Of a DNA stretch of 64,000 bases, positions 1 through 35,167 are shown piece after piece. How positions within the stretch are numbered: the first letter of the stretch is position 1; every line of letters begins with the position of its first letter. A model generated the notes under the pieces. The model made no database searches and was not told where the DNA came from. It saw only the letters and a program-made list of their open reading frames with translations. Both the position numbers and the translations under genes were made by a program. This stretch comes from a virus, in IMG/VR virus record IMGVR_UViG_3300009034_000016, positions 1 to 64,000 of that record, one strand, 5' to 3'.

Positions 1-1422
1 CTCCTTGCAGATCCCGTCCACCTGGATCGCTCTGAGGCGATAGACTCGCTGATTAAACATCGCAGAGTCCGGAACCAAGTCATTCGTCAACGGGTGCTCC
101 TGGAGAGAAGGCTTGATGTTCTATGCGAGTATGTGCTGGGTTATACCATCAAGCCGTTTCACCTGGCCATGATCAAATTCCAAGAAGAAAATCCCTTCTC
201 CCTCCAGTTAAGTTTCCGCGGAGCCGGTAAGAGCCACATACTAACCATCGCAAAGATAATCATGGAACTCCTAATCGATCCGAATATTCGGATTCTTATC
301 GGGAGCAAGACTCAAAAACAAGCCGAAGGTTTTCTCCGGTCGATTAAGCAGCATTTCATGTCCCCTCAGTTCGTCGCCGTATTCGGCAACAGGATAGGGG
401 ATAAGTGGGAGACTTCTGAGATAAACATGAGGGGACGGACCAGCACAGAGATGGAAAGTAATGTCTCGACTATCGGAGTGGAGGGGGCTATCGTATCGAG
501 ACATTTTAATCAGGCATATCTTGATGATATAGTAGCGGAGGAGAACTCAAAGACGCAACTTCAGCGGGACAAGGTATATACCTGGTATTATAAGGAACTT
601 GAACCATGCCTCCTTCCCGGAGAAGACACCCAGTTACACCTTAACGGAACCCCTTATCATCATAAAGATTTTTATAATCACCTGAAGAAAAGAGAATTAA
701 AGGAATTTACTCAAATAATCCCTTCCCTGGATAAAAAAGGTGGGACGCCTTGGCCAGAGCGGTTCCCAGTTGAATACTTTTTGCGGAAGAAAGCAAAAAC
801 TTCAACCGTTATTTTTAATTCGCAATATCAGTGCGACACCCGGGCGATGGAAGCTGCAATCTTCCAGCCGGATTGGTTTCGGGAATGGGATATCTTGCCC
901 GACAACCTCAGAATATTCCAAGCGGTTGATCCCGCAATCAGTCTAAAGACCTCTGCGGACTATTTTGCGAGCGCAACTATCGGGATTGATCACAGTGTAT
1001 CACCCGCGGAGGCTTATGTGCTAAAATGCTATAAAAAGCGAATGACTTTCCCTCAGCAAAAAGAAGAGATGATCCGGGATTTAATCGAATGGAATCCGGA
1101 GAGACTGGGGGTGGAGGCTAACGCATATCAGGGTGCACTTTACCAAGAACTCCGGGCCGATCACAGGACAAGTCCCTATACAATTGTTCCGATCTATAAT
1201 ACAGTTAAGAAAAAAAGCAGGGCCTTTCAGCTTGCCGGTAAATATGAGGAGGGGAGGATATGGCATAAGCAAGGATCCTCGGATTTGGAAGATCACCTGA
1301 TAGACATCACCGGCGATAAGGAAGAAGAGGACGATATGTTCGATGCTGTTGAAATGGGCGTCCGATTAGGTTTTGGTAAAAGAAGCAGAGCATTAAGAGA
1401 GGAAGAACCGGGGTTGATATGA
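1..1422 (+). CDS. terL: Terminase large subunit (5' end outside window)
   Basis: DNA-packaging motor: ATP-driven translocation of phage DNA into the prohead and cutting of the concatemer. Counting residues from the GTG at 94, the Walker A-like FRGAGKS has its lysine at about 46, and the Walker B LDDIVAEE has its aspartates at about 144-145. A RNase H-like nuclease domain follows, with candidate metal ligands D279 (AVDPAIS), E341 (GVEANAYQ) and D417 (DDMFDAVE). The frame is open upstream of GTG 94 all the way to base 1, and the translation there looks like coding sequence. The gene therefore very likely begins left of the window, and 94 is only an internal start candidate. The stop overlaps the portal start by ATGA. 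Family assignment is secure from motif order and from the portal gene next door. Confidence 0.93.
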   Translation, partial: LLADPVHLDRSEAIDSLIKHRRVRNQVIRQRVLLERRLDVLCEYVLGYTIKPFHLAMIKFQEENPFSLQLSFRGAGKSHILTIAKIIMELLIDPNIRILIGSKTQKQAEGFLRSIKQHFMSPQFVAVFGNRIGDKWETSEINMRGRTSTEMESNVSTIGVEGAIVSRHFNQAYLDDIVAEENSKTQLQRDKVYTWYYKELEPCLLPGEDTQLHLNGTPYHHKDFYNHLKKRELKEFTQIIPSLDKKGGTPWPERFPVEYFLRKKAKTSTVIFNSQYQCDTRAMEAAIFQPDWFREWDILPDNLRIFQAVDPAISLKTSADYFASATIGIDHSVSPAEAYVLKCYKKRMTFPQQKEEMIRDLIEWNPERLGVEANAYQGALYQELRADHRTSPYTIVPIYNTVKKKSRAFQLAGKYEEGRIWHKQGSSDLEDHLIDITGDKEEEDDMFDAVEMGVRLGFGKRSRALREEEPGLI

Positions 1423-3104
1423 GTAAAGGAAAAAAAGATGTAATGATGGAAGACGGTAAGGGCCCGGACAGCCCCACTAAGCAAAACATTGTGAAGGCGA
1501 TAGTGGTCGGAATTAGGGAAGATGTCCGTGCAGAGATGTCCGGGAAGACTCGGCAGATTGACGATTCCGAAGACTGGACTACGATGTATAAGGATGGGAA
1601 AGCGATTTCCCCTCCCTTTGAACCGTTAATTCTGGCTCAACTGCCGGAGAACAGCAGCGAACTCGGCCAGTGTATCGAAGCGATGGAGGTCAACATCGAG
1701 GGGTTCGGACATCGCTTTGTCCCCATTGTGGACTCAACAGAGATTAAGGAAGCTCAGAAAAAAGAGATGGAGAAGGAGCATGTAGAACTCTTTAATTTTT
1801 TTAATACATGTTCCGGAGTTGAGGAATCGTTCACGCAGTTAAGAAGAAAAACCCGGAAGGACATGGAAGCAACCGGGAACGGATACTGGGAAATTATCGA
1901 ACCGCCCCTTAAGAAAAATAGTCTTAGCGGGATCAATCATATCGAAGCTCACACTATGAGACTATCGACTCTTGACAAAGAGTTTGTTGATGTGGAGGAG
2001 AAAAGGCTGATTAAGAAGGATGACGGGACTTGGAAATACGAAGAAGTCAAGGTGCAGAGAAAGTTTAGAAAATTCTGCCAGATCAGGGGGGGCAGCACGG
2101 TATGGTTTAAGTCCCTGAACGATCCCCGGGATCTTAATTATAAGACGGGAGAGTTTGCGAAAGATGGGGCAAGGCTTAAAGTCGAAGACCGGGCAAATTC
2201 CGTGATTCATTTCAAAATCTATTCACCTCGCTCACCTTACGGAATCCCACGCTATATAGGAAACCTTTTTTCCATCTATGGGAGTCGGGCATCGGAGGAA
2301 ATAAACTACACTACACTGCGGAACAATAATATTCCCTCAATGATAGTCGCGGTGTCTAACGGCCAGCTTACTTCCGGGACGATTAAAAGAATGAAGGAAT
2401 TTGTTGAGACCCAGATTAAAGGTTCAGATAATTACAGCAAATTTTTATTATTGGAAGCAATGCCGGTTGAGGAGGGCGACGCGGGGGATGGAAAGGTCAA
2501 GATCGAGGTTAAGGAACTTACCGGATCGCAGATGCATGATGCTTTCTTCCAAACCTATGATAAGAACAATTGCGAAAAGGTCCGGCGGTCGTTCCGATTG
2601 CCGCCAATATTTTTGGGCGGCGCAGATGAGTATAATCGTGCTACGGCTGATACATCGAGGAAGCTCGCCGATGAACAAATCTTCGCCCCGGAGCGGGATG
2701 AGATCGATTTCGTGATCAATCGGCAGATACTCCCTAAGCTTAGTGCACGCTATTATGTGTTCAAGTCCAACAGCCCGATTATCACGAATAATGAGGAGTT
2801 AATCCGGCTCCTTACCGCAGCTGAGCGAGCAGGGGGGATTAACCCCCAGATAGCCCGTGATATTATATCCGAGATATTTGGAAAAGACATGGGAAAGGTT
2901 ACAGCAATAGATCCAAAAATACCTTTCACTATCCAAGTGGCAGAGGCGGCGAAGAAGCGTTCGCCGATTAATTTGGGCACGGTAGCACCAATAAAGTCGG
3001 ATGTAGATTATAGTGATGTGCAGGAATTCATAATGGGACTCTTAGCGGTTCGTAAGATTCTAACATCGTATTCGGAATATGGCGGGAAGATAGAAGGCGA
3101 ATAA
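1419..3104 (+). CDS. Portal protein (PBSX/HK97-like)
   Basis: Dodecameric ring at the capsid vertex through which DNA enters and leaves. The 561-aa length is normal for the family. The central part (about residues 265-310) has the portal-like stretch SPYGIPRYIGN, followed by the long helical segment with NNNIPSM. The C-terminal half carries ATADTSRKLADEQIFAP, the conserved region that precedes the family's tail. The gene overlaps terL by four bases (ATGA) and is followed after one base by a small membrane-protein gene. Position between terminase and the Mu F-like gene supports the call. The closest family by eye is the PBSX portal group. Confidence 0.88.
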   Translation: MSKGKKDVMMEDGKGPDSPTKQNIVKAIVVGIREDVRAEMSGKTRQIDDSEDWTTMYKDGKAISPPFEPLILAQLPENSSELGQCIEAMEVNIEGFGHRFVPIVDSTEIKEAQKKEMEKEHVELFNFFNTCSGVEESFTQLRRKTRKDMEATGNGYWEIIEPPLKKNSLSGINHIEAHTMRLSTLDKEFVDVEEKRLIKKDDGTWKYEEVKVQRKFRKFCQIRGGSTVWFKSLNDPRDLNYKTGEFAKDGARLKVEDRANSVIHFKIYSPRSPYGIPRYIGNLFSIYGSRASEEINYTTLRNNNIPSMIVAVSNGQLTSGTIKRMKEFVETQIKGSDNYSKFLLLEAMPVEEGDAGDGKVKIEVKELTGSQMHDAFFQTYDKNNCEKVRRSFRLPPIFLGGADEYNRATADTSRKLADEQIFAPERDEIDFVINRQILPKLSARYYVFKSNSPIITNNEELIRLLTAAERAGGINPQIARDIISEIFGKDMGKVTAIDPKIPFTIQVAEAAKKRSPINLGTVAPIKSDVDYSDVQEFIMGLLAVRKILTSYSEYGGKIEGE

Positions 3105-3309: not shown

Positions 3310-3508
3310 GCAGGTAAGGGAATTGTTGAATAGGGCCGGTGTCACAATAAAGTCCGTAAAAATAAACGGGGCTCAAAAATGTATGGAAAGAAAGTTTAGC
3401 CGAGTAATGGAAGAGCATCAGGCAACAGTGCAGGAAATAGCTGAACTGATAAACGAGGAATGTTCTGGATGCAACCCGGGGGACGATGGAGATGGGGCTA
3501 CCAGCTGA
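3299..3508 (+). CDS. Hypothetical protein with C-terminal CxxC
   Basis: 69 aa, starting at GTG 3299 or the adjacent GTG 3302, inside the end of the previous gene. It is mostly helical and charged (VKQVRELLNRAG, then MEEHQATVQEIAELINEE) and ends in CSGC. It overlaps the Mu F-like gene at its 3' end by about 23 bases. The dense overlap on both sides supports expression. I do not recognise a family. Confidence 0.5.
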   Translation: MVIKQVRELLNRAGVTIKSVKINGAQKCMERKFSRVMEEHQATVQEIAELINEECSGCNPGDDGDGATS

Positions 3509-4514
3509 AAAGTTAGAGACAATGAAGGCCAAGGCTGTCCGCGAGATCGACCTGCTTATGGTTGAGGTTATGATGGAGGGCTTGTCTCAGGAGCCCTCGA
3601 TCCGGCGGCTGGAAGTAAGTCTGGCCGAGTCTCTTGTTTCAAAATTCAAAAAGAGGGTCCAGGTGGCGATTAATCGTGGACTGGCTACCCTTAACCTAAA
3701 ACCCGATAAGCCCTATACGGACAAGGATGTTAGGAAATTTTTAGACGCCTTTAAAAAAGAGTACTCGAAGTTTCCGAAAGATGCTGAGCCCACCATTAAT
3801 AGGTTTGCTCCGGCGATGTATAACCAGAGCAGGCGGCTACCAGTGAAGCCGATCAAGAAGCAGGTTGCGATAGACTTCGACCTGATAGACGATGCGGCTC
3901 GGGCTCACATGACCAAGGAGAGTATGTGGTGGGTGGGAGATCATTACGATACGGTGCTCCGGGAACGGCTTAACGATATGACCCGTCACAGCATGATTGA
4001 GAAGGGGCTGGGGCGCGTTGAGGCGGCGAAGGATCTACGAAAGAGCTTGCAGGACAATATGCTGCGAGGCAAGATGCCAGCGGTTCCAATGCCTCCCGGA
4101 TGGCGGGGAACAGACCAGGCATACTTTGAAGCGTTATCGGGAAATATTGCAAACCGGGCAAGCAACTTCGGAACGATTACCAACTACCAGGAAGCGGGTT
4201 TTGAGACCTTTGAAATAGCCGCGATAATTGACCGAAGGACTTCAGATATTTGTCGACGGATGAATGGAAAGGTCTTTACCGTTGACCAGGGAGCCGATCT
4301 CCGGGACCGGATTATAGGCGCCGAGAACCCTACGCAGTTGAAGGGAATAGCGGGGTGGGTAAAAGGCAAGGAGGCTGAGAAGTTATTCGGGATCAAGTCG
4401 GGAGTTGCAGCCACTCCTGCGCAAACTACAAAAATGGCAAAAGCGGGTATGGCCTTGCCACCTTATCATTTTAGGTGCCGGACGGTAATTATACCCGGGC
4501 CGGCTACGCGATAA
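3486..4514 (+). CDS. Mu F-like minor head/morphogenesis protein
   Basis: 342 aa, minor head protein of the SPP1 gp7/Mu F family, thought to be incorporated into the prohead and ejected or involved in head assembly. The signature is the C-terminal Mu F domain: GFETFEIAAIIDRRTSDICRR around residue 240, followed by MNGKVF, and finally LPPYHFRCRTVIIPG with the conserved HFRCR motif at the C-terminus. The N-terminal 200 residues are helical. The gene sits directly after the portal as in SPP1, Mu and PBSX relatives. The start at 3486 overlaps the upstream gene, and M3 is an alternative. Confidence 0.85.
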   Translation: MEMGLPAEKLETMKAKAVREIDLLMVEVMMEGLSQEPSIRRLEVSLAESLVSKFKKRVQVAINRGLATLNLKPDKPYTDKDVRKFLDAFKKEYSKFPKDAEPTINRFAPAMYNQSRRLPVKPIKKQVAIDFDLIDDAARAHMTKESMWWVGDHYDTVLRERLNDMTRHSMIEKGLGRVEAAKDLRKSLQDNMLRGKMPAVPMPPGWRGTDQAYFEALSGNIANRASNFGTITNYQEAGFETFEIAAIIDRRTSDICRRMNGKVFTVDQGADLRDRIIGAENPTQLKGIAGWVKGKEAEKLFGIKSGVAATPAQTTKMAKAGMALPPYHFRCRTVIIPGPATR

Positions 4515-4678
4515 GAATAGATTATGAGTCCAATTACAGCAGATGCTTTAAACGGGGGAAGAAAGCACCCAGCGCAGAGACGCTTCGAAAGTGCCTTAGT
4601 CGAGGACTGGAGAAGGCGACGCTGGGCTTTACTGCTCCACAGCGAAGATGTGCTCAAAATGGAGATCGAGGAAATTGA
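4475..4678 (+). CDS. Small Cys-containing ORF overlapping head gene and fusion gene
   Basis: 67 codons from GTG 4475, read in a different frame from both neighbours. The C-terminal half (KKAPSAETLRKCLSRGLEK, then TLGFTAPQRRCAQ) looks like real protein with two cysteines. The same bases read in the frame of the large fusion gene give an arginine-rich, unlikely stretch. This suggests that the small ORF is genuine and that the fusion protein really starts at ATG 4659, about 20 bases before this stop. The exact start of the small ORF is unclear and no function is known. Confidence 0.4.
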   Translation: MPDGNYTRAGYAIRIDYESNYSRCFKRGKKAPSAETLRKCLSRGLEKATLGFTAPQRRCAQNGDRGN

Positions 4679-7600
4679 TGTAGCGAGCCTTCGCAAGGCA
4701 AGCGACCGGGAGCTACTAAGCCTCCATCGGCGGACTCATCAGCTATGGTCAAAGGTAAAGCCGCACGAAAAGCGGGATGGACTTTATTTAGTGGCGCCCC
4801 ATGCGCAGAGGATATGGGAGGGTAAGAAGAGACTTATTATCAAATCTAAAAAATTTAATGTTGAAGGCAAGAAATACTACCTTGTTCAGGATAAAGTTTA
4901 CGGAGTTATAGAGATGGGAGCCCCTTACAGTATTAACTTAGAGGAGTTCAAGAAACTATCGAAGCTTCACCTGATATCCGAGAAGGAGAGGTCCGAATGG
5001 TGGCCAGACTATAAAACTCTTTATGCCTACGCCGTTAAAAAGTTCGAGAGATTCCCAACCCCGAAAGATTACGATAGGGTCCCGCAGGCCCAGATATTTG
5101 TCAAGGATGTTGAACCGAGAAACAAAGTATCGAGGAGTGATATCGAGGCGGCTCATGAATTAATAGTATCCGAAGTGATAAGGAGGGGAATGGAGCATAA
5201 GACCCCGCTGGAGGATAAGAAAACCAAAGGGGTGGCAAAGTCCGTCCCGAAGGGAATTGATGCAATCTATAACGATGAGTACTTCAAGGGGCTCCTGAGC
5301 ATAGACACAAATTTTATCGCTGATCTTGCAGAGGTCAATAAGTACCTGGCGGGGGAAAGCTTACTCGAAATAGGTTGTGGATGCGGCAGGGCACTCAAGG
5401 TATTTGAAGTTTCCGGAATGAGCATTATCGGGGTTGATGCCGCAAGTAAGGCGATAGAGATGTGCAAGGCTGCCGAGCTCGAGGCCCGGAGGATGGATGC
5501 CCAGTATCTCGAATTCAGAGACGGGATGTTTGACACAGTTTTCTCAATGCACCTGCTTGAACATCTCGAAGATCCTATTAAGGCGATTACCGAGTCTCTA
5601 AGAGTAGCACGGAAGAGGGCGATTCATTTAGTTCCGCTTGGTAAGCGGGAGGATGTTACGCACCTCTGGGAATTTCTCAGCATAGAGAATTTACGGTCTT
5701 TCGTAGGGGATTTAGAAGTTGCAACACACTTTCAACGGATTCCAATGACTAATTGTGGGGTTATTGTATTTGATAAAGAACTACGGGGCGACATTCCTTT
5801 TTTTAATTATCTTGATTCTTTTACGGTAACTCCCGGATATGTCAGCCTCGGAGGGGGGTCGGTTAAAAAACCAAACCCGGACGATCTCGATATAATTATC
5901 AGGGAGGAAATACCGGATGATGGGCTGGAGGTAGCCCTGAGAAATCTCTTTTTCGATCCTGAGATAAGGAAGCGACTGCATTTCATCTATCATTCGGCTG
6001 GCCCTCACGATGATAGCATACCCCTGATGGACAAAGTCTGTCAGCTTCGTTCTGATTTTGAAATAAATCGAGTTGATGTAGAGAAAAGAGAATTGAAGCC
6101 TCTAACCCACTTCAAGCCCTTAAAGACCGGGAGGGGATATACGCAATTGGAGTTCTTTGCCCCGGAGGAGTTGTGGGAGAAGTGGGCCAAGCCCCTGATG
6201 GACGAAGGGATCGATATTGAGGTGGAAAGAAAATTTGGTGGCTGGCGCACGATCGCGCAAATTGACGAGAAGGGCAAGACCTATATATATTTTGATGATA
6301 CCAAGACTGACCGCTCAAAGCAGTTTATGAGTTTGGTTAGCGATCTTGAAGTTATCGGGGAGCCAGTAATATTAGACATGGATCTCGGTGCGGTCTATTC
6401 CGATGGTAGGCCAGTCGATAGAGTTAATCTTGGATTCGGCGGTAAGGTAATAATCCCGGAGAGTGGTAAATTTAAAATCAAGGATGGGCTGGATGCAATG
6501 CTTGTGGCGAATGTCTTTGATATCCTTTACTACGAAGGAGAGGATCTACATACCAAGCCCTGGGAGGAGAGGCGGGAAAGCTTGGAGAAGCTATTTGGCA
6601 AGCATGATTTTCGATTTCTTAAATTAGTCAAGAAGAATATTACATCCGATAAGAAAAGTTTCTTGGCCGCGGTGGCCCGGGTATCGAAGTTACCTGGATC
6701 GGAAGGAGCGGTGCCCAAGGCGGTAAATGGAGACTATCCACTTACGGGTATGACGCCGAGCGTAGCAAAAGTCAAAAATACACTCGAAATCAAAGTTCAG
6801 GTGATGGGTCGAACTCCGGTTAAAGATGAGGATATATGGACTTATGATATATCCGCTCTTGGGGGGGATGGCAATCCCGTAGATCTCGGCAAAACCATGA
6901 ACACCAAGCTGGATACCAAAGCTGGCGATATTATTACGATCTCAGTTCAGGAGGTTATACCTGATTGGGACGAGGAGCGTGAAATCTGGACGATTGCTAT
7001 CGTGATCCCGATTCCGCAAAATATAGAGCCGGGGAGAAAGAAGCCCGACACGGTTAGTGAGATTATCGTCAGGGCGGATAAGGCCAACATTCTCCAGGCA
7101 TCCCCGGCGGTGCGTGATAAGCTCAGGGCTTCAAGAATATCGGTCCGGAAGTTTATCGAGGAGCTTGTTGACTGCTTGGATGAAGAGAAACGGGATGCCC
7201 TCAGACCGCAGCCCGGGTCCCGGGAGGGGCTTGCTAACGAAGTTGTAAAATACATTCCAGAGCATAAAACCTACGTAGAGCCCTTTGCTGGCGGCGGTCG
7301 AGTGCTGATGAAAAAAGAGCCGTCCGAAATTGAGGTTCTTAGCGACTTAGATTCGGAAGTAATGTTCATGTTTAAGGCCGCCAAGTCCTTCACTAAGGAA
7401 GAAATAGAAAAGTTAAGGAAAATGGATTGGACGCGTGCGGAATCGAAATGGCTTCAGCTTAAGAAGTCAAAATTTAAAGATAAGCTCCGGGAATTCTACC
7501 GACTGATGTATGTCCGAAGATGTTCGTTTAATTACGATGGCTCTGCGTTTGCACGAAATAAAGAAGGGAGTCGGCTTGATTTTGGCCGAATAGAGCCTTG

Positions 7601-9143
7601 GTTTGGAGCAAAGGGAAGGCTTGCTAAGGTTAAGCTTCTTACCTGTGACTATGCGATTGCTATAAAAAGATTCGATGGTCCTGAAACATTTTTCCATATC
7701 GATCCGCCTTTTATAGGACATACTGAAAGCGGGGGATGGAAAAAATGGAAAGGCTTTGATTTCGAGAGACTATTTAAAATCGTTAAACAAATCAAGGGAA
7801 AATGGCTACTTACGATCGACGATGCTAAGGAAGTAAGAAAAATATTTTCTAAATATCATATAAAAGAAATTAAGGTTTTTAAGGGAAGCCAGCGTTTTTC
7901 TTGGTATGGGAATAAGATAAGGACGGAGCTCCTTATATCCAATTACAAGTTAGAGAAGGCTGGCGGGGGCAAGGCCGAGGAAACAGAGAAAGCCCAAAAG
8001 CCCGAGGCGAAGATCACGATCAAGAAGGGTGATAAGGGAGATGGGATACTCCAGACCCATGAACTCGGCCTAACGGAAGACCAGGTTAAACTACTCGGCC
8101 CCGACTTTTCATTCGGCTGGGATCCGGTCGAAATAAGCGATAGCCAATTTGGGAGACTCTATGAGATCCAGGATATTGGTTGGGAAGGGCTTGTTAAGAA
8201 AGCATCGGAAGGTGACTCTTCTAACCTGGGTAAGGCGATCAATAAAATTGATAAAGACGAACTGTCAGTATCCCAAAGAAAACTCATTGCACTGGTTGAA
8301 CCGGTTGCTATTCACACTGACATTAGATTACATCCGAAAGGGGCGCCATACTGGGAAGGCGGTGAGGGATTTACTCCGGGAAATCAGTTCCAAATAAATA
8401 AGTTTACTTTATTAGAAAAGGATGCTAAGGTTAGAATATTAATGGACTTCAAACGCCCCCGAAAGGGGACGGGAAGAGTCGAAACGATTAGAGGTCCCTT
8501 GATATGGTTAAAGGTCGGACTCAAAAAACCTCAAAGCTTTCCGCCCGGCTCGGTCGGTTCGACAGCAAAGGCTTGGGCAAGGTTTACGATAAGGGATTTG
8601 TTCGACTGGGAAGCAGGCACTCAGGAACCGCACTATAAGGAGTTTAAGTTTGACGATGGTGTACTTAAGGGCAGACATATTATGGCCTTCGCTCCACTTC
8701 CTGGGCGTGAGCAGAGAATGTGGCTGTTCTCCAGGCCGGGCAAACAAGAGATGGACGAAGAGGGAAAAAGTATCGTCAAGATACTCAAGGTCGATGAGGA
8801 GAAGAGAACTGTCCTCGGAGTAGTATTAGAGCCAGAAACTTTCGATGCCCAAGATGAAATTGTCAGTGCACCAGTTATTGAGAAAACCGCACATGACTTC
8901 CTTGCGAACTACAATCAAAAGACCAAACTTGGATATATGCACACCTTCTTTGAACCGGATCTCCAATTATATGAGTGTTATGTCGCACCCATAGATATGG
9001 TAATCGAGGGGACGAGGGTAAAGAAGGGTTCCTGGCTTATGCTCAGCAAGGTAAATGACGACCATATCTGGCAGCAGGTAAAGGATAAGAAAATTAAGGG
9101 ATATTCCATAGCGGGAATCGCAATAGCAAGGACTATCGGCTAA
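4524..9143 (+). CDS. Giant fusion: ASCH-like / methyltransferase / nucleotidyltransferase / DNA ligase / Dam / LigD-PE-like / XkdF protease
   Basis: Residue numbers count from ATG 4524; ATG 4659 (M46) is the more likely true start. In order: an ASCH/PUA-like domain (about 55-200); a class I SAM methyltransferase (motif I LLEIGCGCGRA at 280, HLLEHLEDP after it); a nucleotidyltransferase-like fold (GGGSV 443, DDLDI 453-457); an ATP-dependent ligase core with KFGGWR (candidate AMP-lysine K570), ILDMDLG (D620 where Glu is usual) and FDILYYEGEDL (665); an OB-like domain (about 755-835); a D12-class adenine methyltransferase (YVEPFAGGG 917, DPPF 1060); a LigD 3'-phosphoesterase-like region (HTDIR near 1264, PPGSVGS near 1340); and a C-terminal XkdF domain (about 1417-1539), the putative prohead protease of PBSX-like phages. 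It lies exactly where the prohead protease is expected, before the scaffold and capsid genes. Several active-site residues are altered, so activity of each module is uncertain. Confidence 0.85.
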   Translation: MSPITADALNGGRKHPAQRRFESALVEDWRRRRWALLLHSEDVLKMEIEEIDVASLRKASDRELLSLHRRTHQLWSKVKPHEKRDGLYLVAPHAQRIWEGKKRLIIKSKKFNVEGKKYYLVQDKVYGVIEMGAPYSINLEEFKKLSKLHLISEKERSEWWPDYKTLYAYAVKKFERFPTPKDYDRVPQAQIFVKDVEPRNKVSRSDIEAAHELIVSEVIRRGMEHKTPLEDKKTKGVAKSVPKGIDAIYNDEYFKGLLSIDTNFIADLAEVNKYLAGESLLEIGCGCGRALKVFEVSGMSIIGVDAASKAIEMCKAAELEARRMDAQYLEFRDGMFDTVFSMHLLEHLEDPIKAITESLRVARKRAIHLVPLGKREDVTHLWEFLSIENLRSFVGDLEVATHFQRIPMTNCGVIVFDKELRGDIPFFNYLDSFTVTPGYVSLGGGSVKKPNPDDLDIIIREEIPDDGLEVALRNLFFDPEIRKRLHFIYHSAGPHDDSIPLMDKVCQLRSDFEINRVDVEKRELKPLTHFKPLKTGRGYTQLEFFAPEELWEKWAKPLMDEGIDIEVERKFGGWRTIAQIDEKGKTYIYFDDTKTDRSKQFMSLVSDLEVIGEPVILDMDLGAVYSDGRPVDRVNLGFGGKVIIPESGKFKIKDGLDAMLVANVFDILYYEGEDLHTKPWEERRESLEKLFGKHDFRFLKLVKKNITSDKKSFLAAVARVSKLPGSEGAVPKAVNGDYPLTGMTPSVAKVKNTLEIKVQVMGRTPVKDEDIWTYDISALGGDGNPVDLGKTMNTKLDTKAGDIITISVQEVIPDWDEEREIWTIAIVIPIPQNIEPGRKKPDTVSEIIVRADKANILQASPAVRDKLRASRISVRKFIEELVDCLDEEKRDALRPQPGSREGLANEVVKYIPEHKTYVEPFAGGGRVLMKKEPSEIEVLSDLDSEVMFMFKAAKSFTKEEIEKLRKMDWTRAESKWLQLKKSKFKDKLREFYRLMYVRRCSFNYDGSAFARNKEGSRLDFGRIEPWFGAKGRLAKVKLLTCDYAIAIKRFDGPETFFHIDPPFIGHTESGGWKKWKGFDFERLFKIVKQIKGKWLLTIDDAKEVRKIFSKYHIKEIKVFKGSQRFSWYGNKIRTELLISNYKLEKAGGGKAEETEKAQKPEAKITIKKGDKGDGILQTHELGLTEDQVKLLGPDFSFGWDPVEISDSQFGRLYEIQDIGWEGLVKKASEGDSSNLGKAINKIDKDELSVSQRKLIALVEPVAIHTDIRLHPKGAPYWEGGEGFTPGNQFQINKFTLLEKDAKVRILMDFKRPRKGTGRVETIRGPLIWLKVGLKKPQSFPPGSVGSTAKAWARFTIRDLFDWEAGTQEPHYKEFKFDDGVLKGRHIMAFAPLPGREQRMWLFSRPGKQEMDEEGKSIVKILKVDEEKRTVLGVVLEPETFDAQDEIVSAPVIEKTAHDFLANYNQKTKLGYMHTFFEPDLQLYECYVAPIDMVIEGTRVKKGSWLMLSKVNDDHIWQQVKDKKIKGYSIAGIAIARTIG

Positions 9144-9189: not shown

Positions 9190-9275
9190 CCCCGTGAATT
9201 GATCACACGGGGGGCTTTGATCTGGGAATCCAGCTAAATCAAAGGGCTTGGGTTTGAATACCCAAGCCCTTTTTT
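9190..9275 (+). terminator. Three hairpins ending in a rho-independent terminator
   Basis: The first hairpin is CCCCGTG (9190-9196) with CACGGGG (9206-9212). The second is CTTTGAT (9215-9221) with ATCAAAG (9238-9244), enclosing CTGG/CCAG. The third is a perfect 12-bp stem, AAGGGCTTGGGT (9242-9253) with ACCCAAGCCCTT (9260-9271), followed by more T residues. The third is a textbook terminator. Its 5' arm shares three bases with the second hairpin, so the two may compete. It separates the fusion gene from the scaffold and capsid genes. The rest of 9144-9348 shows no gene. Confidence 0.85.
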
Positions 9276-9320
9276 AGTTGGGGAGGGAATTTTTAGTGTG
9301 TGTGTAGTGCCTTGAATCTC

Positions 9321-9348: not shown

Positions 9349-10341
9349 GTGGCTTCACCCGATGTTCCGAGGCCTGGAAGTTCGATAGACGATGATAAGA
9401 AAAAAAAGCGGCTTGTCGGCTTAACGGCCAGGGAAGTGAGTCTAGTAGACAGACCAGCGAATCAGAAGGATTTTCTTGTAATTAAAAATTTATCCGAGAA
9501 AGGAGGGATAGAGATGAAAAGAGAAAAAGTTATTAACGAAGAGGGCAAGGAAGTGCAGATAGTCAAGGATGACCCGACTGGGGACGTTGTCACTCTAGAA
9601 CTCAGTGAGGAGGAAGCTCAAGTTGCTCTTGCTGAGGATCTGGATATTTCGCTAGATGAGTTGAAGTCGCTCCAGGAAAGTGTGAAAGACGAAGGCGAAG
9701 ATGGAGTAGGCGACGGTGCTGGTGGGGCGGCGGACACTGGAGGAGATGCTGGTGGAAAGGAGAAGCAGGTTAAGCTTCCCGCTGCTACGGAGACAATGAT
9801 TAAGAAGCTAATTGCTTTGCTTACCAAGTTACTCGCAAAGTATCCTTATGGATATGGCTATCCGAAAGCCCCCGGATCCCAGAAGACTACGGTAAAGGAT
9901 GGAGGCGATGGTTCTGGTGACAGTGAATCTGGAAAGGGCGCCAGCGAAGGCGATGGTGCCCAAGATGTTGAGAAGATCGGCAGTCCGATTTCCCGGGAAC
10001 GTCTCAAGACTCTGAGAGGGGTTGTCATTACGCTTCAAAAGCTTCTTGACGAACTGGATAAGAAGAGTGAGGGAGAGGAGGCACCAGCTAAGAAGGCCGA
10101 TGAAAAGGGCGGAGAGGAGACTCCGAAGGAAGAGGTCCCGGTTAAGAAAGCCGAAGGAGGCGACGGTGCTGGCGACAAAGGTAAGGAAGATCCCACTCTA
10201 TTAGAGGTAGTGGCCGAGTTGAAAGGTCGCGTAGAGGCCATGGAGCAACTCGAGGGAACTCAAAAGGGACAAAAAGCCGATGGGACGGAAGGTGGCGGGA
10301 CGAAGGAAGGTATGTGGAGTAATGTCCTGGGCATCTCATAA
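9349..10341 (+). CDS. Putative head scaffold protein
   Basis: 330 aa, starting at GTG 9349 behind GGAGGGAGAG. The N-terminus has LTAREVSLVDRPANQKDF, a motif typical of the start of XkdF-like/scaffold-type phage head proteins. The rest is low-complexity, rich in Gly, Asp, Glu, Lys and Ala, with a short helical core (LKTLRGVVITLQKLLDELDKK) and a C-terminal helix. High charge, disorder, and a position between the prohead protease domain and the major capsid gene suit a scaffold that is degraded on maturation. Function is inferred from position and composition only. Confidence 0.65.
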   Translation: MASPDVPRPGSSIDDDKKKKRLVGLTAREVSLVDRPANQKDFLVIKNLSEKGGIEMKREKVINEEGKEVQIVKDDPTGDVVTLELSEEEAQVALAEDLDISLDELKSLQESVKDEGEDGVGDGAGGAADTGGDAGGKEKQVKLPAATETMIKKLIALLTKLLAKYPYGYGYPKAPGSQKTTVKDGGDGSGDSESGKGASEGDGAQDVEKIGSPISRERLKTLRGVVITLQKLLDELDKKSEGEEAPAKKADEKGGEETPKEEVPVKKAEGGDGAGDKGKEDPTLLEVVAELKGRVEAMEQLEGTQKGQKADGTEGGGTKEGMWSNVLGIS

Positions 10342-10363: not shown

Positions 10364-11179
10364 ATGACTAAGATGACTAATCAAGAACTTGTTGAAAAGG
10401 GAATAATTGTCGCGTCTGCCCTGGCTACTCAGGGAAAGCTCAATCCGCAGCAGGCCGACAAGTTCCTGGACTATGTCATCGACGAGACGAAACTCAAGGA
10501 CGCAGCGAGGATTGTAAGGTTCAAGCCCGAGAGCTACGATATCGACAAAATCGGAGTTGGGGCGAGAGCAGCGGTGCCGAAGGCTGAGGCTACCGACCCG
10601 GGAATCCGCCGGGGTATTGTCACATCCAGGGTAAGGTTAACTCCTGAAGAAGTTATGGTCCCAGTGGAGATCAGCGATATCTTCAAGGATGTTAATATTG
10701 AGGGCGATGATGTAGAGACTCATATCATCAAAATGTTTGCTACCCAGTTAGCAAACGATCTGGAAGAGCTCTATATCATAGGTGATATTCTCGGACCAGC
10801 CGTACTGGAGGGGAATATCGTAGATGGTGGATCAACGACTCAGTATATCAGGGATAGCTACCTGGCGCTCATGAACGGATGGCTCAGGATATGCGATGGG
10901 ACTACTACTCCCCTCCGGGTGGGGGCGCATGTAGTCAATGCGGCCGGAGTCAACATCGAGTCCAAAATCTTCTCGAACGCGATCAAGGCTATGCCGGAGA
11001 AGTTCAAGCGGAACCGGAATCAGTTAAGATTCCTTATCGCACCCGACTTGGAACAGAACTACCGGGAAAAGATCTCGACCCGGGCAACCGGCGCTGGTGA
11101 TGTAGCCCTGTCTACCACCAAGAACCTGACTCCGTTCGGGATCGAGGCGGTTCCAATACCACTACTAGCCAGGATCTAA
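10364..11179 (+). CDS. Major capsid protein, N-terminal part (frame broken)
   Basis: HK97-fold major capsid protein of the PBSX XkdG-like group. The best start is ATG 10373 (MTNQELVEK), about ten bases after AAAGGAGGG; ATG 10364 touches the SD. The frame runs through the typical PEEVMVPVEISDIF and the ATQLANDLEELYIIGD helix, then stops at TAA 11177 just after GIEAVPIPLLARI, before the expected C-terminal P-domain strands. Those strands are present immediately downstream in the -1 frame. Reading one extra C in the CC at 11169-11170 joins the two parts as PIPLLAQDLTNGTI, giving a protein of about 357 aa, the usual size. A sequencing or assembly deletion is the simplest explanation; a true mutation or recoding cannot be excluded. 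Confidence 0.85.
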   Translation: MTKMTNQELVEKGIIVASALATQGKLNPQQADKFLDYVIDETKLKDAARIVRFKPESYDIDKIGVGARAAVPKAEATDPGIRRGIVTSRVRLTPEEVMVPVEISDIFKDVNIEGDDVETHIIKMFATQLANDLEELYIIGDILGPAVLEGNIVDGGSTTQYIRDSYLALMNGWLRICDGTTTPLRVGAHVVNAAGVNIESKIFSNAIKAMPEKFKRNRNQLRFLIAPDLEQNYREKISTRATGAGDVALSTTKNLTPFGIEAVPIPLLARI

Positions 11180-11181
11180 CC

Positions 11182-11436
11182 AACGGGACGATCACTAGGC
11201 TTACTGGGGGAGCCATTGGTTCCGGTGCTACCGTGAAGGTGACCTATAGCCCTTATTCCCAGATGCTCTTAACCCATTTCCGGAATCTTATTGTAGGTCT
11301 GGGAAGGGATGTGCGGATCGAGAAGGACAGGGACATCTTCAAGGGTGTTAATCAGTATGCGATTACGATCAAAGTGGCGGTGGATATTGAGAACCTCGAC
11401 GCAGTCGTCAAGGTAACGAATATCGGCTTATTGTAG
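11182..11436 (+). CDS. Major capsid protein, C-terminal part (-1 frame)
   Basis: Continuation of the capsid gene in the -1 frame. It opens with NGTITRLTGGAIGSG, then HFRNLIVGLGRDVRIEKDRD and VNQYAITIKVAVDIENLDAVVKV, the characteristic C-terminal strands of PBSX/P2-like capsid proteins, where a resident charged pair precedes a strand ending in AVVK. It has no ribosome-binding site of its own, and GTG 11233 is only an internal codon. It should be read together with the upstream part as one gene. Confidence 0.8.
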   Translation, partial: NGTITRLTGGAIGSGATVKVTYSPYSQMLLTHFRNLIVGLGRDVRIEKDRDIFKGVNQYAITIKVAVDIENLDAVVKVTNIGLL

Positions 11437-25525: not shown

Positions 25526-26688
25526 TTAAAAGGGAACTTGCATTGGAATAGAGGAAGATGATTATGAGAAAATCTTTTAGATATAGGCTTTTCACTAATA
25601 AAATTCAGGAACTAAAGCTGAGCCAACTGCTTGACTCGGCCCGCTTTCTTTATAACTGCGCTCTTGAACAAAGAATTATCTGCTATAAACAATGGCGTAA
25701 ATCTATTAACTATTACGACCAAGCTAATAGCCTTAAAGAAATTCGCGGCTTTAACAAAGGCATTGCTCAGCTTAATTATTCTTGCTCTCAAAATATACTC
25801 CGGCAACTTGACAAAGCTTTTCAAGGCTTCTTTAGACGCATCCCCCAAGGCGAAAAACCTGGATTTCCCCGATTTAAAGGAGAGGATAGATTTAACTCGA
25901 TTACATTTCCAACCTATGGAGATGGTGTCAAGCTTCAGAATGGAAAACTTTATATTCAGAATATTGGCCATATCAGAATTAAGCTCCATAGAAACTTAAA
26001 AGGAACAATCAAAACTATTACAATTAAAAGGCAAAACGGGCGATTCTATGTTTCTTTTTCTTGCAATGGAGTCCCAAGAGCAATCCTTCCAGCCTCCACC
26101 AAAGAGATAGGTATTGATGTCGGTATTAAGTCCTTCGCCGTTATGTCCGATGGTCAAGTTATTGACAACCCGAAACACTTGAAGCAAAGCGAAAATAAGC
26201 TGAAAGCTCTTCAGCAACAACACTCTGAAAAGCGGACTCGCAAGACCAAAAGAAAATTGGCCCAGCTGCATGAAAAAGTAAGTAACCAGCGCAAAGACTT
26301 TCTGCATAAACTGAGTAGAAAAATCGTGAACCAATTTGGTTTTATCTTTGTCGAGGATCTCAAACCCAGAGAAATGGTCAATAATAATTTTAAGGTTCTC
26401 AACAAGTATATCAACGATGCTGCGTGGTCTTTGTTCTTTAACTTCACGGCCTACAAAGCGGAAGAGGCTGGTAGGGTGTTTGTTAAAGTCAACCCAAAAG
26501 GAACTACGCAAGAATGTTCTAATTGCGGGGAAATTGTTCCGAAAGATTTGAGTGTGAGAATTCATCATTGTCCTCGGTGTAGCTTTAAGGTCCCTCGTGA
26601 TTTCAACTCATCGTTAAATATTCTTGGGCGTGGACAACGCCTCGTGCATAGTACGGAAGCCGCCTGCTTTAGCTGACGGAGTTGTCAC
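25526..26688 (+). mobile_element. TnpB-only IS200/IS605-type element
   Basis: An IS605-family element lacking the TnpA transposase, between two essential baseplate genes. The right end is recognisable: just after the tnpB stop, the sequence CGGAAGCC...CTGCTTTAGC...CGGAGTTGTCAC (26654-26688) matches the imperfect hairpin and terminal GT(T)GTCAC common in this family. The left end is not resolvable within the 32 bases that separate the gp25 stop from tnpB. The insertion leaves both neighbours intact. Confidence 0.75.
25564..26676 (+). CDS. tnpB: TnpB RNA-guided endonuclease
   Basis: About 370 aa from ATG 25564 (MRKSFRYRLF); ATG 25558 is two codons upstream. Counting from 25558, the RuvC triad is intact: D187 (GIDVGIKS), E266 (FVEDLKP) and D348 (PRDFNSSLN). 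The zinc ribbon CSNC...CPRC lies between the last two. The N-terminal wedge/REC region (SARFLYNCALEQR) is complete. TnpB proteins cut DNA guided by an omega RNA transcribed from the element's right end, promoting retention of the element. Lower G+C than its neighbours fits recent transfer. Nothing suggests inactivation. Confidence 0.92.
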   Translation: MRKSFRYRLFTNKIQELKLSQLLDSARFLYNCALEQRIICYKQWRKSINYYDQANSLKEIRGFNKGIAQLNYSCSQNILRQLDKAFQGFFRRIPQGEKPGFPRFKGEDRFNSITFPTYGDGVKLQNGKLYIQNIGHIRIKLHRNLKGTIKTITIKRQNGRFYVSFSCNGVPRAILPASTKEIGIDVGIKSFAVMSDGQVIDNPKHLKQSENKLKALQQQHSEKRTRKTKRKLAQLHEKVSNQRKDFLHKLSRKIVNQFGFIFVEDLKPREMVNNNFKVLNKYINDAAWSLFFNFTAYKAEEAGRVFVKVNPKGTTQECSNCGEIVPKDLSVRIHHCPRCSFKVPRDFNSSLNILGRGQRLVHSTEAACFS

Positions 26689-33979: not shown

Positions 33980-35167
33980 ATGGCTAATTTAGAAAAAATT
34001 CAATTCGCTGCTGCTAAAACCGGACTAAGTATCATAGGCAGAATAGTGCGGGATGCTGATCTTTATTATTATGATTTCGTAACAGGGGGCAATACCTTCG
34101 TTGCCACCGATTCGGCTAATACAAGAATAACTATGCCTGCCCGAAGTGCTCCGCAAAACTATATCTACGAATCCGCTACTTTTGATATTGAACTCTGGAA
34201 CGACGGTTGGTACGAATGGCAAGTATATGATGCTGTCGATAAGCTGCTTGCATTATCACGATATTATATTTCCAATGGGTTTATCATGTTTGATAATTAT
34301 CTTGTTGGTTTAAAGACCGATATAACGGGAGTGAAAGCAAAGACGGATAACCTGCCCCCGAACCCCACGAGCGAAACTAATGCGACCGCCAATAAGGACT
34401 CTATTATCGTCGAGATAGATAATAACGAAACCAAAATAGATTCCGTGCAGGGGGATGTTACCGCCATTAAGGCAAAAACCGATAATCTGCCTGTCGATCC
34501 AACTTCCGAAGCTAATGCAACTGCGAACAGGAACGCAATCGTAGCTGAGGTTAACGAGAACGAGGGAAAGATAGATATCGTTGACGGCAATGTGGATAGT
34601 ATCAAAACAAAAACTGATAACCTGCCCGTTGATCCAGCGAGTGAAGCCAACGCCACAGCTAACAAGGATGTGATCGTAGCTGAGGTAAATGTTAATGAAG
34701 GCAAAATAGATTCAGTTCAGGTAGATGCAACCGCAATAAAGGCAAAGACTGATAATTTACCGACGGATCCGACGTCTGAGACCAATGCTACGGCGAATAA
34801 GAATGAGATAGTTACCGAGGTGGATGTCAATGAGACCCTAATTAACGGGGTCAAAATTAAAACGGATAACCTCCCAATCGACCCTACCTCCGAGACAAAT
34901 GCTACTACCAATAAAGATGAAATCATTGCAGAGATAGACGGCAATGAGGGGAAGCTTGATGACATTAAATCAGATACCACAGCTATTAAGGCGAAGACAG
35001 ATAACTTACCTCCTGACCCTGCTAGTCAATCCCAGGTGGAAACCGCTATCGACCTCGTGCCCGAAGCGGTATGGGAAGTTGATATAAACGATACCGAGCA
35101 ACCAACTATAATCCAAAAAGCTAAACACTGGCAGGGACTGGTAGGCTCGATAATGAGGAAACAATGA
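33980..35167 (+). CDS. Repeat-stalk fibre protein
   Basis: 395 aa. The N-terminal 110 residues form a beta-rich head or attachment domain (YYYDFVTGGNTFVATDS). Then come six units beginning (I/V)KxKTDNLPxDP, five of them with SEANATANKD and (I/V)xAEVN. Full units are 45 residues, and one is exactly seven shorter. Such repeats build trimeric coiled-coil/beta stalks. The C-terminus (EAVWEVDINDTEQPTIIQ) carries the VWE(V/T) motif seen in phage fibres. It overlaps the next gene by ATGA. Confidence 0.72.
   Translation: MANLEKIQFAAAKTGLSIIGRIVRDADLYYYDFVTGGNTFVATDSANTRITMPARSAPQNYIYESATFDIELWNDGWYEWQVYDAVDKLLALSRYYISNGFIMFDNYLVGLKTDITGVKAKTDNLPPNPTSETNATANKDSIIVEIDNNETKIDSVQGDVTAIKAKTDNLPVDPTSEANATANRNAIVAEVNENEGKIDIVDGNVDSIKTKTDNLPVDPASEANATANKDVIVAEVNVNEGKIDSVQVDATAIKAKTDNLPTDPTSETNATANKNEIVTEVDVNETLINGVKIKTDNLPIDPTSETNATTNKDEIIAEIDGNEGKLDDIKSDTTAIKAKTDNLPPDPASQSQVETAIDLVPEAVWEVDINDTEQPTIIQKAKHWQGLVGSIMRKQ
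34331..35030 (+). repeat. Tandem 135-bp coding repeats (six units)
   Basis: Units start at 34331, 34466, 34601, 34736, 34850 and 34985. Spacing is 135 bp except for the fourth unit, which is 114 bp, a loss of exactly seven codons (one heptad). The last unit is truncated. Amino-acid conservation is higher than nucleotide conservation, so the repeats are old and under selection. Confidence 0.85.

What the first reader, a model, noticed from the sequence alone, without database searches (positions are those of the whole stretch)
4524..9143. Multi-enzyme fusion carrying two DNA methyltransferase-like domains and a ligase core ahead of a prohead-protease domain
One open frame links, in order, ASCH-like, SAM methyltransferase, nucleotidyltransferase-like, ATP-ligase core (KFGGWR), OB-like, Dam-type (FAGGG/DPPF), LigD-PE-like and XkdF domains, placed exactly where a phage encodes its prohead protease. 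Seen: motifs and order. Known: XkdF is the putative prohead protease of PBSX-like phages, and prohead proteases cut themselves and capsid partners. Inference: the enzymes may ride inside the prohead as protease-linked cargo, be released by cleavage during maturation, and be injected with the genome to seal nicks or methylate DNA. I know of no described phage with this exact chain.
Basis: partly seen in the sequence, partly recalled or inferred. Interest (0 to 1): 0.92.

Follow-up and report, generated by a model that had tools for sequence, protein, structure and literature searches.

The report
Prohead protease carrying DNA-repair enzymes
In this uncultured bacterial virus the only recognised protease that matures the empty virus shell is fused to a chain of DNA-repair and DNA-methylation enzymes, and related chains in other bacterial and archaeal viruses suggest that these viruses load a DNA end-repair kit into their heads.

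Summary
ORF 4524-9143 (1539 aa) contains a SAM methyltransferase, an ATP-dependent DNA-ligase core with OB domain, a Dam-type methylase, a LigD-type 3'-phosphoesterase (PE) and a C-terminal XkdF protease. The nucleotidyltransferase (NT) rests on motifs only; the 'ASCH' label was not confirmed, though that domain is conserved.

It is not a singleton. About 20 related proteins share an NT-ligase-OB-PE core, including ANMV-1 virus and contigs binned with methane-oxidising archaea. Where tested, the gene sits in the head module, next to portal and usually capsid genes. Five contigs, including this one, have XkdF fused at the C terminus, and in each it is the only XkdF. The methylases and N-terminal domain come and go.

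Best explanation: a LigD-like DNA end-healing and sealing enzyme built into the prohead as part of the maturation protease, released by cleavage, acting on the packaged or entering genome. Encapsidation and injection are inferred.

Closest known kind: 'polyvalent proteins' with C-terminal assemblin-like peptidases (Iyer 2017). New here: the LigD-like content, fusion to the sole XkdF, its spread into archaeal viruses, and a protease apparently split with the scaffold. Caveats: ligase motif drift, no proteomics, Dam insertion at this site unconfirmed.

The parts
4524..9143 (+). Multi-enzyme fusion ORF, 1539 aa
   Evidence: conserved order in L002 and L007; dN about 0.15 against saturated dS in the part shared with L002
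4773..5138 (+).
   Evidence: Also in L002, L006, L014, L023; no Pfam or meaningful PDB match
5256..5783 (+). Class I SAM methyltransferase (residues 245-420, LEIGCGCG motif at 281)
   Evidence: Pfam Methyltransf_11 5e-16; also in L002 and L007 only
5793..6128 (+). Putative Pol-beta-type nucleotidyltransferase (residues 424-535)
   Evidence: Conserved motif GG-x(n)-(G/D)-D-(I/L)-D in the relatives; no Pfam or PDB support
6159..6803 (+). ATP-dependent DNA ligase adenylation domain (residues 546-760); motif I KFGGWR at residue 570
   Evidence: Pfam 3e-11; PDB profile 8.5e-25; Foldseek 1.7e-17; motif I KFDG/KYDG in archaeal-virus relatives
6786..7025 (+). OB-fold domain of the ligase (residues 755-834)
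   Evidence: Modelled with the ligase at good confidence; conserved in 19 of 20 relatives
7191..7958 (+). Dam-type (D12 class) adenine methyltransferase (residues 890-1145; FAGGG at 921, DPPF at 1060)
   Evidence: Pfam 1e-15; similar module at a different site in L018
8025..8744 (+). LigD-type 3'-phosphoesterase domain (residues 1168-1407; ILQTHE at 1175 and HTDIR at 1264 read as the two halves of its active-site motif, split by an insert of about 80 aa)
   Evidence: Profile of relatives to LigD-PE structures; Foldseek top hits 3p43, 3p4h, 3n9b; motif reading
8757..9140 (+). XkdF (Peptidase_S78_2) prohead protease domain (residues 1412-1539); conserved His1473 and Ser1528
   Evidence: Pfam 2e-27; only copy in the contig; His/Ser conserved in the fused relatives
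9229..9282 (+). Terminator-like hairpin between the fusion gene and the scaffold-like gene
   Evidence: RNA fold z = -6.2
9349..10341 (+). Scaffold-like gene whose N terminus carries the S-L-V-D-R-P-A-N motif of XkdF-type proteases
   Evidence: phrog_3017 head maturation protease, profile positions 12-53; same pairing in L007, L010, L017, L018
94..1422 (+). Terminase large subunit (start of the head module)
   Evidence: phrog_38 2e-76
1419..3104 (+). Portal protein
   Evidence: Phage_portal 2e-11 and phrog_12 1e-32
3486..4514 (+). MuF-like minor head protein
   Evidence: Phage_Mu_F 2e-7
10364..11179 (+). Capsid-like (phrog_1623, virion structural protein) gene; shorter than in L007
   Evidence: phrog_1623 8e-58; L007 relative 397 aa

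Best explanation
The gene encodes the virus's own prohead maturation protease (XkdF) with a DNA end-healing and sealing machine attached to its N terminus: a LigD-type 3'-phosphoesterase that would clean 3' ends, a putative Pol-beta-type nucleotidyltransferase, and an archaeal-type ATP-dependent DNA ligase with OB domain. This lineage adds two methyltransferases, one of them Dam-type. Because protease and scaffold assemble inside the prohead, the enzymes would be built in at low copy. The adjacent gene, a scaffold-like protein, starts with the SLVDxPAN segment that belongs to the protease in other phages, so docking of the two may hold the cargo inside. The protease then cleaves scaffold and linkers, the freed enzymes stay with the packaged genome, and they repair nicks, clean and join ends, or methylate the DNA in the head or at entry. 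Shown: domain content, recurrent head-module position, sole XkdF, purifying selection in the part shared with L002. Inferred: encapsidation, cleavage, ejection and substrate.
For: Domain content. About 20 relatives with the NT-ligase-OB-PE core, including ANMV-1 virus, where it lies between a portal and a gene whose C terminus looks MuF-like. Portal and/or capsid genes beside the core gene in L007, L010, L012-L015, L017, L018, L021, L022. XkdF fused in five contigs and the only XkdF in each. Only one PF01068 ligase per virus contig. Catalytic His and Ser kept. The gene after the fusion starts with an S/G-(L/I)-V-D-x-(P/A)-A-N motif in all five; in psiM2 the same motif follows the catalytic Ser on one chain, in Lactococcus phage 28201 it precedes the protease. 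No ribosome-binding site before the XkdF part in the window, and clear sites before the scaffold gene but not before the fusion gene, fitting one low-copy polypeptide. dN well below dS over the ligase. Precedents: T4 Alt and P1 DdrB packaged in heads, C-terminal assemblin-like peptidases in polyvalent proteins (PMC5512222).
Against: No virion proteomics and no cultured relative with the fusion. In Corndog, enzymes encoded between portal and protease were not found in purified virions (PMC4351075). Archaeal-virus members carry the core enzyme without the protease, so fusion is not obligatory. Ligase motif I (KFGG instead of KxDG), motif III (Asp for Glu) and motif VI have drifted in this lineage, so strand joining may be weak. 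NT identity is motif-only. Cleavage sites are unknown. The two-chain protease idea was not modelled.
Confidence: 0.5

Rival explanations
1. The enzymes act in the infected cell, not in the virion. Late in infection the chain repairs and methylates newly made DNA at the portal or during packaging, and the protease releases itself from the enzymes before or as the prohead forms.
For: Head-gene position and presumed late expression also fit this; archaeal members are unfused next to portal and protease genes; Corndog enzymes between portal and protease are seen in infected cells but not in virions (PMC4351075).
Against: In five contigs the enzymes are fused to the sole XkdF; in a single chain the natural place of that protease is inside the prohead; no convincing internal start for a free protease in the window.
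Confidence: 0.27
2. The enzymatic part is decayed and now serves a structural or DNA-binding role in the head.
For: Motif I KFGG, motif III Asp and a weak motif VI in the window; KYNG in L007; NT and methyltransferase parts are the least conserved between window and L002.
Against: Catalytic Lys570 and Gly573 and the motif V lysine are invariant across relatives; purifying selection on the ligase; methylases, PE and XkdF keep their motifs; archaeal relatives have canonical ligase motifs.
Confidence: 0.12
3. The chain modifies proteins or host molecules (for instance capsid methylation) and the DNA-related domains serve host takeover.
For: The Methyltransf_11 domain has no known substrate; Corndog enzymes in this position are thought to modify the capsid (PMC4351075); polyvalent proteins often target host proteins (PMC5512222).
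Against: Most domains are DNA end-processing or DNA-methylation enzymes, and the ligase profile matches DNA ligases.
Confidence: 0.06
4. The chain is partly an assembly artefact.
For: The Dam insertion at this site was found in this contig only (one search found no relative); the nearby capsid-like gene looks disrupted.
Against: The frame is open across every junction; L002 and L007 from other metagenomes confirm the other junctions; L018 shows a similar Dam module in the same kind of chain.
Confidence: 0.05

Closest known systems
Polyvalent proteins with C-terminal assemblin-like peptidases (Iyer et al. 2017, PMC5512222)
   Same: Large multi-domain protein in a viral head-gene context, DNA methylase among the domains, maturation-type peptidase at the extreme C terminus, predicted packaging and processing
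   Different: The paper's main text names no DNA ligase or LigD-PE module and was not among the hits for XkdF; here the peptidase is the virus's only XkdF and the enzymes form a LigD-like repair set
Bacterial LigD (NHEJ ligase)
   Same: One chain carrying 3'-phosphoesterase, a putative nucleotide-adding domain and an ATP-dependent DNA ligase with OB fold
   Different: Putative Pol-beta-type NT in place of the AEP polymerase domain, ligase closer to archaeal DNA ligases, no Ku in the contig, fused to a prohead protease in a head module
PBSX XkdF / psiM2 and Lactococcus phage head maturation proteases
   Same: Same protease family, same gene position, same conserved His and Ser
   Different: The four examined are small proteins (about 151-351 aa) without enzymes attached; here the SLVDxPAN part lies on the next gene
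ANMV-1 virus 'ATP-dependent DNA ligase' (AJP62006.1)
   Same: NT-ligase-OB-PE core directly after the portal gene
   Different: No protease, no methyltransferases; ligase motifs canonical

Membership tests
XkdF (Peptidase_S78_2) prohead protease | Match above the Pfam curated cut-off | tested here: met
   96 bits against 24
XkdF (Peptidase_S78_2) prohead protease | Conserved catalytic His and Ser | tested here: met
   His1473 and Ser1528, invariant in the aligned fused members
XkdF (Peptidase_S78_2) prohead protease | Position between portal/MuF and capsid genes | tested here: met
XkdF (Peptidase_S78_2) prohead protease | Proteolytic activity in the prohead | not testable with these tools
   Needs purified protein or proheads
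Polyvalent protein (Iyer 2017) | Several disparate catalytic domains in one chain | tested here: met
Polyvalent protein (Iyer 2017) | Assemblin-like peptidases, where present, at the C terminus | tested here: met
   XkdF at residues 1418-1533 of 1539; that XkdF counts as assemblin-like rests on prior knowledge and was not tested by structure
Polyvalent protein (Iyer 2017) | Transfer into the host with the DNA | not testable with these tools
   Needs virion proteomics or a translocation assay
ATP-dependent DNA ligase | Nucleotidyltransferase fold plus OB fold | tested here: met
ATP-dependent DNA ligase | Motif I KxDG | tested here: not met
   KFGG in the window and L002, KYNG in L007, KWNG in L010; KxDG in the other aligned relatives
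LigD (NHEJ) | 3'-phosphoesterase domain | tested here: met
   one relative found by the Pfam model
LigD (NHEJ) | AEP-type polymerase domain | tested here: not met
   Pfam and the best 25 NCBIfam matches of the chain list no AEP/primase domain; a putative NT domain lies beside the ligase
LigD (NHEJ) | Ku partner | tested here: not met
   No PF02735 in the contig
Dam-type (D12) adenine methyltransferase | FxGxG and DPP(Y/F) motifs, Pfam match | tested here: met
   FAGGG 921, DPPF 1060, 58 bits against 22
ASCH domain | Pfam or structural match | tested here: inconclusive
   No match to ASCH; conserved domain without identified fold

The most novel reading that the evidence does not exclude
A split maturation protease acts as the loading device for DNA-repair cargo: the scaffold's N-terminal SLVDxPAN segment completes the XkdF fold carried on the multi-enzyme chain, so cargo, protease and scaffold co-assemble inside the prohead; self-cleavage then frees a LigD-like kit that heals and circularises the genome on entry. 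The ligase-PE core would be a widespread virion-borne genome-repair enzyme of tailed viruses of bacteria and archaea.
Probability: 0.25. Interest if true: 0.88.

Novelty: new variant of a known kind. Interest (0 to 1): 0.72.

Why it matters
It points to a family of multi-enzyme proteins in the head modules of bacterial and archaeal tailed viruses, with a LigD-like DNA end-repair core, that is not described in the literature searched. If the enzymes are packaged, these viruses bring their own ligase, end-healing enzyme and methylase into the cell with the genome, which would bear on how linear viral genomes are sealed and protected at entry. The apparent split of the XkdF protease between cargo chain and scaffold gives a simple testable loading rule.

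Tried and rejected
RNA ligase/RNA repair reading: rejected as first choice because profile and fold searches return DNA ligases; one relative also matched Pfam RNA_ligase weakly. Existing phage 'DNA methyltransferase / prohead protease' annotations as precedents for the fusion: the four XkdF genes looked at encode proteins of about 151-351 aa that contain the protease (and scaffold) but no methylase, so the label looks propagated. Scan for further copies of the OB-Dam-PE junction: none found. PE+XkdF structure prediction: poor model (mean pLDDT 50), used only for its ranking of LigD-PE hits. A scan with the PE+XkdF alignment could not run. A PE profile from the ANMV-1-like subgroup found no PE structure. 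Paenibacillus locus L025 is a short ordinary-looking ligase (332 aa), not a member. Number of XkdF fusion events: the ligase tree needs two changes but long branches make this unsafe.

Full report
OBSERVATION. The frame 4524-9143 is open for 1539 codons. Pfam places a Methyltransf_11 domain, a DNA ligase adenylation domain, a D12 (Dam-type) methyltransferase and an XkdF protease in it with scores well above the curated cut-offs. The contig is an 80,478-base virus record; its last 119 called bases repeat its first 119, so it is probably a complete circular map. The gene lies between a MuF-like gene and a scaffold-like plus a capsid-like gene, with terminase and portal upstream.

LIGASE. A profile from 18 relatives finds archaeal DNA ligases in the PDB at 8.5e-25 and a LigD ligase domain at 6e-9. 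AlphaFold models the adenylation and OB domains mostly at 80-96 pLDDT; Foldseek ranks archaeal ligases first. In this lineage motif I reads KFGG (window, L002), KYNG (L007) or KWNG (L010) instead of KxDG; the other aligned relatives keep KxDG. The adenylated lysine, the motif I glycine and the motif V lysine are invariant.

PHOSPHOESTERASE. In relatives a motif such as FVIQNHFRGSSSHGDFR resembles the LigD-PE signature (my reading, from memory of that family). A profile of five such relatives finds four PDB sequences at E<=5, all LigD-type phosphoesterases (3p4h 0.0046, 3p43, 2lj6, 3n9b); a profile of five ANMV-1-like members found none. The poor model of the window's own PE+XkdF segment still ranks LigD-PE structures first to third (E 0.015-0.15). 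In the window and L007 the two motif halves (ILQTHE 1175, HTDIR 1264) are apart by an insert of about 80 residues.

WEAKER LABELS. The nucleotidyltransferase rests on a motif conserved in the relatives with no database support and low model confidence. The N-terminal 'ASCH-like' domain is shared with archaeal-virus proteins at about 30% identity but matched no ASCH entry.

FAMILY. Scans of viral and genome contigs plus ANMV-1 gave about 20 relatives. Domain HMMs (run against these 20 proteins only, so the E-values are relative) show an NT-ligase-OB-PE core with optional parts: XkdF in the window, L007, L010, L017, L018; Methyltransf_11 in the window, L002, L007; Dam in the window (between OB and PE) and L018 (before the ligase); the N-terminal domain in the window, L002, L006, L014, L023. 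L010 has the PE before the ligase; L018 has an intein in the PE; no NT was detected in L017 and L018. L017 and L018 are near-copies of each other apart from the Dam module and the intein. Several members are in MAG contigs of Methanosarcinales and Methanophagales. In ANMV-1 the 866-aa chain follows a gene annotated 'MutT-like phage hydrolase' that is a portal by Pfam.

GENE CONTEXT. Portal and/or capsid genes flank the core gene in L007, L010, L012-L015, L017, L018, L021 and L022; in L014 and L021 a separate head maturation protease gene lies downstream, and in L014 the portal is on the other strand. Each virus contig tested has one PF01068 ligase. In the five fused contigs XkdF is the only XkdF (most of these contigs may be incomplete). 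No Ku was found in the window's contig.

PROTEASE AND SCAFFOLD. His1473 and Ser1528 are conserved. In psiM2 a SIVDRPA motif follows the catalytic serine on the same chain; in Lactococcus phage 28201 the equivalent precedes the protease; in the five fused contigs it opens the next gene, the scaffold-like protein. The protease therefore looks divided between cargo chain and scaffold. That the motif is a strand of the protease fold is an inference from these permutations and from the HK97-type proteases as I know them. The scaffold gene has a clear ribosome-binding site in all five while the fusion gene has none or a weak one (starts of L017 and L018 uncertain), and in the window a strong hairpin separates the two genes (the number of terminator-like patterns in the region is not above shuffles, but this hairpin's fold is, z = -6.2). 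This suggests a low-copy protease chain and abundant scaffold.

SELECTION. Between window and L002 the fusion has dN 0.15 against saturated dS; ligase dN 0.12, dS 1.8. The shared enzymatic part is maintained; the Dam and PE parts lie beyond the end of L002 and were not tested.

MECHANISM. Because a prohead protease works inside the prohead, a chain that is the virus's only XkdF should be built in there, with its enzymes. PE, NT and ligase together resemble LigD in function. The likely job is end cleaning, nick sealing or end joining of the packaged or entering genome, with Dam marking it against restriction. Encapsidation, processing and ejection are inference. Packaged head enzymes are known (T4 Alt, P1 DdrB; PMC5512222), and phages that use host LigD through their own Ku have been reported (cited in PMC7719229). 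The counter-example is Corndog (PMC4351075).

RELATION TO KNOWN WORK. Iyer et al. 2017 (PMC5512222) described polyvalent proteins and noted that assemblin-like peptidases, when present, are always C-terminal. This chain fits that kind. Searches of the text library found no description of a ligase, LigD-PE and prohead protease in one chain; the library lacks most subscription papers.

LIMITS. No proteomics; no cultured relative; Dam insertion seen at this site once; the capsid-like gene in this contig appears disrupted by a deletion and frame change relative to L007, which may be an assembly error.

Noticed in passing
11100-11430: The capsid-like gene ends at 271 aa; a C-terminal part similar to L007's capsid continues in another frame and a middle stretch seen in L007 is missing. 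Deletion or assembly error.
   Followed up: partly
G000 contig ends (window 1-119 and L031 end): The last 119 called bases of the 80,478-base contig equal its first 119, so the contig is probably a complete circular map.
   Followed up: partly
L018:1869-7133: The relative in L018 carries an intein with a LAGLIDADG-like endonuclease domain inside its phosphoesterase domain and a Dam module at a different site from the window's.
   Followed up: partly
L011:7640-12454 and L020: Archaeal-virus-type relatives have a long N-terminal extension with a PEGA domain and a caspase-like looking segment (by eye) ahead of the ligase core.
   Followed up: no
L002:6182-7744: The MuF-like protein of the closest relative has an extra C-terminal domain with an HNHP motif (JAB/RadC-like by eye) that the window's MuF protein lacks.
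   Followed up: partly
25558-26676: A TnpB-like (IS605 OrfB type) gene by eye, lying within the tail genes.
   Followed up: no
L031:10935-12158 and L031:13322-14650: Two further DNA-methyltransferase-looking genes (DPPYG and SPPYWG motifs) in the last 16 kb of the contig, which also holds a tyrosine recombinase and a RuvC-like resolvase (by eye).
   Followed up: no
NC_023601.2 (L028), Lactococcus phage records such as KX456206.1, and similar phage records: Stand-alone XkdF proteases appear in public phage records as 'DNA methyltransferase', apparently a propagated misannotation.
   Followed up: partly
33980-35167: Protein with a repeated unit (DNLPxDPTSE-NATANK), probably tail-associated.
   Followed up: no
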